In this document: positions 33,541-33,773 of the stretch, piece by piece
Layout: each line of letters starts with the position of its first letter
How positions within the stretch are numbered: position 1 is the first letter of the stretch
NCBI RefSeq assembly: GCF_007795095.1
Contig: NZ_CP042218.1
Location: 1,054,001-1,118,000 of the forward strand
Source of the DNA: Luteimonas granuli
Lineage (GTDB): Bacteria > Pseudomonadota > Gammaproteobacteria > Xanthomonadales > Xanthomonadaceae
Reading direction: 5' to 3'
Length of the DNA: 64,000 nt
The notes under the pieces: model-generated
Databases searched by the model: none
The model's input: only the letters and a program-made list of their open reading frames with translations
What the model was told of the DNA's origin: nothing
Program-made: the position numbers and the translations under genes

Positions 33541-33685
33541 TTGCCGGCCCATGCTTGTGCAGTGCGAGCTGCTGACTCGTTCAACTGTTCGGGCTCTGGC
33601 AAGAGCGTGGAGTGCGGGCGCCCTGGCTCCTACACGTGCTTCAGGGCACCCCAGCTTGTCGGCGTCCCGCACTCCGCTCTCACCT
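33541..33685 (-). ncRNA. predicted bridge RNA of the IS110-family element
   Basis: The region upstream of the transposase folds into two stem-loops. First stem: AGAGCGGAGTGCGGG (33666-33680) with CCCGCACTCC-A-CGCTCT (33602-33618). Its loop carries GTAGGAGC (33626-33633), a perfect complement of the right target, and CAAGCTGG (33651-33658), which shares AGCTG with the left target. Second stem: GCC-GCCC (33591-33600) with GGGC-CGGC (33543-33550). Its loop carries ACAGTTG (33582-33588), identical to the element's transposase-3' end, and CACAAG (33554-33559), the complement of the other end across the CT core. This matches the target- and donor-binding loops known from IS621 bridge RNA. Transcription limits are guesses. 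Confidence 0.78.
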
Positions 33686-33711
33686 GCACGCTAGGCCAAA
33701 GCGAAGACACA

Positions 33712-33773
33712 AGCAGCTACAGCTGCGACCCGATCCGCCGACCTTCGCCGGTCGCAGCTGTAGCTGCTCCTAC
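33712..33773. repeat. remaining part of the REP-like repeat split by the IS
   Basis: AGCAGCTACAGCTGCGACC (33712-33730) pairs with GGTCGCAGCTGTAGCTGCT at 33750-33768. The missing first bases, GTAGGAG, lie at 32557-32563 on the other side of the IS. Confidence 0.85.

What the first reader, a model, noticed from the sequence alone, without database searches (positions are those of the whole stretch)
33541..33713. Bridge RNA of an IS110-family element can be read directly: target and donor guides match the insertion site and the IS ends
Upstream of the transposase lie two stem-loops. Loop one holds GTAGGAGC (33626-33633), exactly the complement of the right target flank GCTCCTAC, and AGCTG (within 33651-33658), matching the left flank GTAGCTG in five of seven bases. 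Loop two holds ACAGTTG (33582-33588), identical in seven of seven bases to the donor end at 32564-32570, and CACAAG (33554-33559), complementary to the other donor end through the CT core (33708-33713). The core is CT, as in IS621. All four guides agree with an independent reconstruction of the empty site, so this is a strongly supported candidate for an RNA-guided recombinase programmed for REP sequences.
Basis: partly seen in the sequence, partly recalled or inferred. Interest (0 to 1): 0.93.

Follow-up and report, generated by a model that had tools for sequence, protein, structure and literature searches.

The report
REP-seeking IS110 with bridge RNA
A 1,150-base jumping element sits in six identical copies in this bacterial genome, each at the same site in a repeated palindrome, and next to its recombinase gene it encodes a predicted guide RNA whose loops match the element's own ends and, less fully on one side, the insertion site, so the RNA likely steers the element there as in the known IS621 system.

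Summary
Confirmed, and ordinary in kind. Window 33713..32564 (minus strand) is an IS110-group insertion sequence; six identical copies in this genome all sit at AGCTG-CT-CCTAC in REP-like palindromes. A covariance model from 28 relatives, window excluded, finds the bridge-RNA fold at 33683-33529 (131.3 bits, E=1.4e-28).

Relatives support guiding: guides follow targets across REP variants, Pseudomonas REP-like sites and attC-like sites, and the first loop-one handshake base can pair with donor position 7 in 72 of 72 copies. In this genome all 6 insertions took AGCTG sites; none took the 33 AGCCG/AGCGG sites (p about 0.01). Against: within REP-type relatives alone the left-guide signal is modest (p=0.021; 0.078 with wobble), and the window's left guide fits relatives' GAAGCCG equally well.

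New member of a known kind; expression and recombination untested. The relatives form a natural series of retargeted loops.

The parts
32564..33713 (-). IS110-group insertion sequence, 1150 bp counting one CT core; left end at 33713, right end at 32564
   Evidence: six copies, 100% identical through the element, with different outer flanks define both ends
32577..33506 (-). recombinase (transposase) gene, 309 aa, with DEDD residues D8, E52, D93, D96 and serine S231
   Evidence: Pfam PF01548 and PF02371; NCBIfam NF033542, 217.1 bits against cut-off 140; residues counted by hand on the 8wt6 alignment, IS621 numbering from passages of PMC11208158
33529..33683 (-). predicted bridge RNA (about 155 nt), both guide loops closed by an outer GAGAGC/GCTCTC helix
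   Evidence: covariance model R1 made without the window: 131.3 bits, E=1.4e-28; consensus with 14 of 30 pairs changed on both sides in at least one sequence; single-sequence fold z=-2.67, 4 of 200 shuffles fold as well
33609..33675 (-). target-binding loop (stem, left target guide, small hairpin, right target guide)
   Evidence: alignment to R1; stem columns 9-23/62-76 with many compensatory changes
33650..33658 (-). left target guide CAAGCTGGG; AGCTG (33656-33652) matches left target positions 3-7
   Evidence: 5 of 9 matched
33626..33633 (-). right target guide GTAGGAG (pairs CTCCTAC) plus first handshake base C, which can pair with donor position 7 G
   Evidence: 8 of 8 with GCTCCTAC
33547..33594 (-). 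donor-binding loop closed by GCCCG/TGGGC
33582..33588 (-). left donor guide ACAGTTG, identical to the right end of the element
33554..33559 (-). right donor guide CACAAG, reverse complement of CTTGTG at the left end
33712..33713 (-). left CT core
   Evidence: junction comparison of six copies
32562..32563 (-). right CT core
   Evidence: junction comparison of six copies
33688..33693 (-). predicted -10 element TAGCGT; its -35 TTGCTT would form only across the circle junction (TTG 32566-32564 + CTT 33713-33711), spacer 17
   Evidence: no promoter-like site by the scan of the integrated form
33714..33773 (-). larger part of the interrupted REP-like palindrome (left target side)
   Evidence: sequence; empty site shown
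32557..32561 (-). CCTAC, right target remainder of the same palindrome

Best explanation
This is an IS110-group insertion sequence whose upstream end encodes a predicted bridge RNA that likely directs its recombinase to join the element's own circle to the CT core of AGCTG-CT-CCTAC in REP palindromes. Shown by sequence: six identical copies at that site, a conserved predicted fold, guide complementarity, guide-target tracking in relatives and conserved catalytic residues. Inferred by homology to IS621: excision as a circle with rejoined ends; transcription of the RNA from a promoter re-formed at the junction (TTGCTT-N17-TAGCGT); binding of target DNA by loop one and of the circle junction by loop two; serine-mediated strand exchange at CT; and a post-exchange handshake pair between the loop-one base C and donor position 7. 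Specificity is predicted to rest mainly on the right target guide (7-8 nt) with a short left guide (5 nt).
For: Six copies, same junction. Fold found by a model that excludes the window. Guides at the stated places. Protein family and residues. Tracking: 15 distinct left guides score 75 of 105 on their own targets against a permutation mean of 46.2, 0 of 100,000 as high. Right guide equals the reverse complement of the right target in 55 of 56 REP-type copies with both read and in 9 of 9 named loci that I tabulated, including the one-base change to GTGGGAG with CTCCCAC in five Pseudomonas loci of three species. First TBL handshake base can pair donor position 7 in 72 of 72 (C-G 27, U-A 45). 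In-genome: 6 of 6 insertions in AGCTG sites, where AGCTG makes 31 of 64 AGCNG-CTCCTAC sites counting the occupied ones, p=0.0098. The 17-nt spacing of a TTG...TA junction promoter holds in 29 of 32 distinct junctions, across both donor types, whose ends differ by a balancing 1 nt.
Against: Left target guide matches only 5 of 9, and the left donor guide is followed by AA where the core is CT. The REP-only permutation is weak (p=0.021, 0.078 with wobble), and the window's guide matches GAAGCCG targets of relatives equally (5 of 7). In attC-type copies the right guide is exact in 8 of 13 and off by one wobble-compatible base in 5, and one copy (G194) has left guide TAACGCCT at a TAACACCT target. 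The DBL handshake base pairs target position 7 in 60 of 73 copies; all 13 attC-type copies fail. The donor/handshake switch is a single change on the tree, so 72 of 72 is not 72 independent cases. My loop patterns were written around seen sequences (REP loops had to contain GTAGGAG), though no copy with a readable REP-type left end was lost by that. Promoter hexamers are poor (3 of 6 each in the window) and the scan found none. No expression data.
Confidence: 0.94

Rival explanations
1. The recombinase itself recognises the REP palindrome (protein-DNA recognition), and the RNA-like segment is a transposase mRNA leader or a regulatory structure; the guide matches are relics of shared end sequences.
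For: For ISPpu9 in Pseudomonas putida two small RNAs near tnp are described as regulators of tnp expression (start of the abstract of PMC8450116 in the listing). The segment lies directly upstream of the start codon.
Against: Guide changes follow target changes among elements with the same left donor guide, in some cases by single bases (GTAGGAG/GTGGGAG; TAACGCCT/TAACACCT in G133); a leader would not be expected to follow the genomic flank. IS621, solved in complex with its bridge RNA (abstract of PMC11208158), aligns to residues 4-305.
Confidence: 0.03
2. The loop matches are copies of target DNA picked up by the element (the RNA gene was seeded from the REP), without a present guiding role.
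For: The right target guide GTAGGAGC is the REP end itself, common in this genome (97 GCTCCTAC sites, though the same 8-mer read backwards has 439).
Against: The matched pieces lie in a fixed register, left guide like the top strand and right guide like the bottom, in 70 parsed REP- and attC-type copies (three G277 copies were placed by hand), with stems that change by compensatory pairs. The six insertions are all at AGCTG although 33 AGCCG/AGCGG sites are available.
Confidence: 0.03

Closest known systems
IS621 of Escherichia coli and its bridge RNA (Durrant et al. 2024, PMC11208160: outline, sections 5, 6, 12 and passages seen; PMC11208158: passages seen)
   Same: IS110 group; RNA in the left end; two loops, first target, second donor; CT core; REP target; junction promoter; DEDD and serine residues
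   Different: Only about 105 bits of phmmer similarity. Predicted RNA has an outer helix closing both loops and no 5' stem-loop within the modelled span. Left target guide short (5 of 9) and right long (8), where the paper describes 8-9 nt on the 5' side and 4-7 on the 3' side. Different REP sequence.
ISCro4 transposase (PDB 9t56)
   Same: Best solved-structure match by sequence, 107.6 bits over residues 4-305
   Different: Only the entry's molecule name was seen; its RNA and target were not compared
IS110-family elements in Pseudomonas REPs (ISPpu9, ISPpu10, ISPa11; Tobes and Pareja 2006, PMC1525189, passages)
   Same: Inserted at a fixed point of REP sequences; two-base direct repeats reported for ISPpu9/10
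   Different: Sequences of those elements were not compared here; ISPa11 is treated as IS1111 with RNA downstream of tnp in PMC11187229 (passages)
seekRNA of IS1111/IS110 types (PMC11187229, 2024; passages)
   Same: Element-encoded RNA with two short stretches pairing to the two target strands
   Different: The cases in the passages I saw are IS1111 with the RNA after tnp; here it precedes tnp

Membership tests
IS110 family (IS110 group) | DEDD RuvC-like N-terminal domain (PF01548) and C-terminal domain with conserved serine (PF02371) | tested here: met
   D8, E52, D93, D96, S231 aligned to IS621
IS110 family (IS110 group) | RNA-guided transposase equivalog score | tested here: met
   NF033542, 217.1 bits, cut-off 140
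IS110 family (IS110 group) | long non-coding left end, short right end, RNA in the left end (as opposed to IS1111) | tested here: met
   left end about 205 nt, right end about 13 nt from the coordinates; RNA at 33683-33529
bridge RNA (IS621 type) | two internal loops, first pairing with target, second with donor, 5' side pairing the bottom strand and 3' side the top strand | tested here: met
   by sequence complementarity only, left target guide weak
bridge RNA (IS621 type) | loop sequences covary with target across relatives | tested here: met
   all classes 0 of 100,000 permutations; REP class alone p=0.021, 0.078 with wobble
bridge RNA (IS621 type) | 5' stem-loop before the two loops | tested here: inconclusive
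   none predicted, and the predicted -10 leaves little room, but I cut the alignment to start at GAGAGC, so the model could not show one
bridge RNA (IS621 type) | promoter re-formed at the circle junction | tested here: inconclusive
   TTGCTT-N17-TAGCGT; TTG-to-TA spacing kept in 29 of 32 distinct junctions, but weak hexamers and no transcript data
bridge RNA (IS621 type) | RNA is made, binds the recombinase and directs recombination | not testable with these tools
   needs small-RNA sequencing and recombination assays
Rfam families | match at gathering score | tested here: not met
   no match in the window; no conclusion drawn

The most novel reading that the evidence does not exclude
This clade is a natural record of RNA-guided retargeting. 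The left donor guide stays frozen at ACAGTTG while the target loop is rewritten, base by base, to each host's REP dialect and, in a sister branch, to attC-like integron sites. Between two branches a one-base difference at the right end comes with three matched changes: the donor-facing handshake base (C or U), a one-base difference of the left end that keeps the 17-base promoter spacing, and the -35 box (TTGCTT or TTGACT). In the REP branch the addressing is inverted relative to IS621, with the long right guide as anchor and the short left guide as fine tuning.
Probability: 0.5. Interest if true: 0.6.

Novelty: new member of a known kind. Interest (0 to 1): 0.42.

Why it matters
It adds a well-supported bridge-RNA candidate outside the enterobacteria, whose six identical copies suggest recent activity. 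Its relatives supply dozens of natural guide-target pairs, some differing by one base. Such a series could show which guide positions matter, how IS110 elements change address, and how the handshake and junction promoter constrain donor ends, without a synthetic library. The mechanism itself is already published.

Tried and rejected
Rfam at gathering threshold gave nothing. The promoter scan of the integrated element found none; the proposed promoter appears only across the rejoined ends. I considered another register for the left target guide. The one used (9 nt before the small hairpin) was applied to all REP- and attC-type copies; L191 would fit better with a one-base linker, but its lower match is what is reported. 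The G277 loop pattern was set by hand. The genome holds no Y1_Tnp (RAYT-type) match, so a link between REP number and a local RAYT was not pursued. Controls: the 14-mer GTAGCTGCTCCTAC occurs 21 times against 0 for the pattern read backwards, the 12-mer AGCTGCTCCTAC 25 against 7, the 8-mer GCTCCTAC 97 against 439, so the 8-mer alone is not enriched.

Dropped before counts: of 101 non-own copies listed I fetched 80. Of 86 loci parsed (6 own + 80), 13 were dropped: 11 because no left-end pattern was found (L052, L097, L098, L103-L109, L128) and 2 because the loop pattern failed in N-masked copies (L126, L127). One further copy (L054) had no readable right end, so donor and right-target counts use 72 and 56. 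Of 32 distinct relative RNAs I gave 28 to the alignment (near-duplicates left out). Of 80 named loci I tabulated nine chosen by eye; L192 and L200 were left out because I did not find their right end. Three of the nine (L195-L197) are copies in one genome, and L190 is probably the same contig as G147's.

Full report
What is there. The window lies at 1054001-1118000 of a single 2,917,404-base contig. On the minus strand 33506-32577 encodes a 309-aa protein with both IS110 domains (PF01548, 2.4e-21; PF02371, 5.5e-20), above the NCBIfam cut-off for 'IS110 family RNA-guided transposase' (217.1 against 140 bits). A phmmer search of solved structures gives ISCro4 (9t56, 107.6 bits) and IS621 (8wt6, 105.4 bits) and nothing else at 1e-3. 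Through the IS621 alignment, the IS621 residues named in PMC11208158 (D11, E60, D102, D105, S241; passages) fall on D8, E52, D93, D96 and S231; the offset of 2 between chain and paper numbering was counted by hand.

Ends and target. Six copies, 100% identical over 1159 to 1161 of the 1161-base query (the missing bases are in the flank), are in the genome, and these six are the only PF01548 matches there. Their outer flanks differ, so the ends are read directly: left side ...AGCTG-CT then TGTGTC..., right side ...GACAGTTG then CT-CCTAC. Left target positions 1-2 vary (GT four times, AT once, GC once); positions 3-7 (AGCTG), the core and CCTAC do not. Among positions 1-7, the two that vary are the two that the guide does not match.

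The RNA. 28 of the 32 distinct relative RNAs, this genome left out, were aligned. RNAalifold gives 30 pairs, 14 of which are changed on both sides and kept in at least one sequence. The target-loop stem is strongly compensated; five of the six outer-helix pairs never vary and so say nothing. A covariance model from that alignment hits the window at 33683-33529 minus, 131.3 bits, E=1.4e-28; the next match is the opposite strand, 21.1 bits, E=0.0031. The same model has a match at E<=0.001 in 70 of 80 named loci (71 matches, L233 twice), many of them weak. The window RNA alone folds with z=-2.67, 4 of 200 shuffles folding as well. Rfam has no match at gathering score.

Guides. RTG GTAGGAGC 33633-33626 (8 of 8), LDG ACAGTTG 33588-33582 (7 of 7), RDG CACAAG 33559-33554 (6 of 6), LTG CAAGCTGGG 33658-33650 (5 of 9). 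The three exact ones occurred in order in 0 of 200,000 shuffles.

Do loops track targets? I searched 297 genomes of the same family; 41, this one included, had a match at 1e-40. Of 101 non-own copies listed I fetched 80; 73 of 86 loci (with the six own) could be parsed. 57 are in REP-like sites, 13 in sites that I read as attC (a label from the flank pattern as I recall it, not tested with an integron finder), 3 in another site (G277). For 15 distinct left guides, own-target matches at positions 1-7 sum to 75 of 105, permutation mean 46.2, none of 100,000 as high; with wobble 81 against 57.8, none as high. Within the 11 REP guides alone: 50 of 77 against 44.2, 2.1% as high; with wobble 55 against 51.1, 7.8%. 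So the strong overall signal comes largely from the different target classes. Single cases for: the three G133 copies have guide ATAACACCT and target CTAACACCT where sister elements have ATAACGCCT/CTAACGCCT; G155 has right guide TAACTCAG with right target CTGAGTT. Single cases against: G194 has guide ATAACGCCT at a CTAACACCT target, and 5 of 13 attC-type copies have one wobble-compatible mismatch in the right guide. The right guide equals the reverse complement of the right target in 55 of 56 REP copies with both read; the exception is one G134 copy at CTCCCAC. The REP loop pattern required GTAGGAG, but no copy with a readable REP-type left end was lost by it. In nine named loci it is 9 of 9: GTAGGAG with CTCCTAC in four, GTGGGAG with CTCCCAC in five Pseudomonas loci of three species.

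Test inside this genome. GCTCCTAC occurs 97 times; 6 are element right ends and 6 are the guide itself, leaving 85. Of these 25 are preceded by AGCTG. I read 82 of the 85 (three AGCTG sites not fetched): 26 AGCCG, 7 AGCGG, 22 AGCTG, 27 others. Adding the six occupied sites, 31 of 64 AGCNG sites are AGCTG; all six insertions there has p=0.0098, or 0.0011 against all 91. This is the best evidence that the short left guide matters, since AGCCG would pair with one wobble. The test was thought of after seeing the sites and treats the six insertions as independent.

Handshake and promoter. The base after the right target guide can pair with donor position 7 in 72 of 72 copies: C with G (27) or U with A (45). 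On a tree of 46 transposases the two types separate by one change, support 100/99, so this is one event, whose direction I did not settle. The A-type branch has a 1-nt longer right end and a 1-nt shorter left end, so that TTGACT-N17-TATCGT (or near) stands where the window type has TTGCTT-N17-TAGCGT, with the same spacing. TTG, 17 nt, TA holds in 29 of 32 distinct junctions; L061 (TTAACT) and two G277 junctions (CACCTT at -10) depart. The base after the right donor guide pairs target position 7 in 60 of 73; the 13 attC-type copies do not fit. Handshake pairing and its covariation are published (PMC11208158, passages).

Placement in the literature. Bridge RNA, junction promoter, REP targeting by IS621 and covariation over thousands of elements are in PMC11208160 (sections 5, 6, 12 and passages). 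IS110 elements in Pseudomonas REPs are in PMC1525189 (passages). Searches for IS110 with REP and Xanthomonas, with bridge RNA, with attC, and with Luteimonas gave listings in which I saw no title or abstract start describing this element (listings only). The host genus is tentatively Luteimonas: the same-genus copy G208:C16:1-651 resembles the Luteimonas sp. XNQY3 fragments L206 and L265, and the protein search lists a partial L. lutimaris protein at 77%.

Verdict. It is a new member of a known kind, with a relative series that is more interesting than the single element.

Noticed in passing
window 31885-32703 (+): The insertion lies in the 3' end of an ABC-transport auxiliary lipoprotein gene (PF03886) whose reading frame ends inside the REP; with the element present the frame runs on antisense into the IS, 272 instead of 242 codons.
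   Followed up: partly
L110-L113, L115-L117, L120-L125: IS110 relatives with the same donor end ACAGTTG but a left end starting CTTATGTC sit in attC-like sites (label recalled); loop one there carries an 8-9 nt left guide including the core and a right guide matching exactly or with one wobble.
   Followed up: partly
L097, L098, L103-L108: Another relative (left end CTTGTATG...) has eight copies whose left flanks share little beyond GCT, and the five right flanks I read share little beyond CTCAG, which looks like a much looser target.
   Followed up: no
G000 whole genome: Sites ending in CTCCTAC come in at least three REP-like dialects (AGCTG, AGCCG, AGCGG), yet no Y1_Tnp (RAYT-type) gene is found.
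   Followed up: partly
L126, L127 (G231): Element ends appear repeated around stretches of N; the right guide GCGGGAGAGC also fits the right target GCTCTCCCG(C).
   Followed up: no
L199: A Pseudomonas relative has a one-base longer right end with G (ACAGTTGG-CT) and keeps handshake base C.
   Followed up: no
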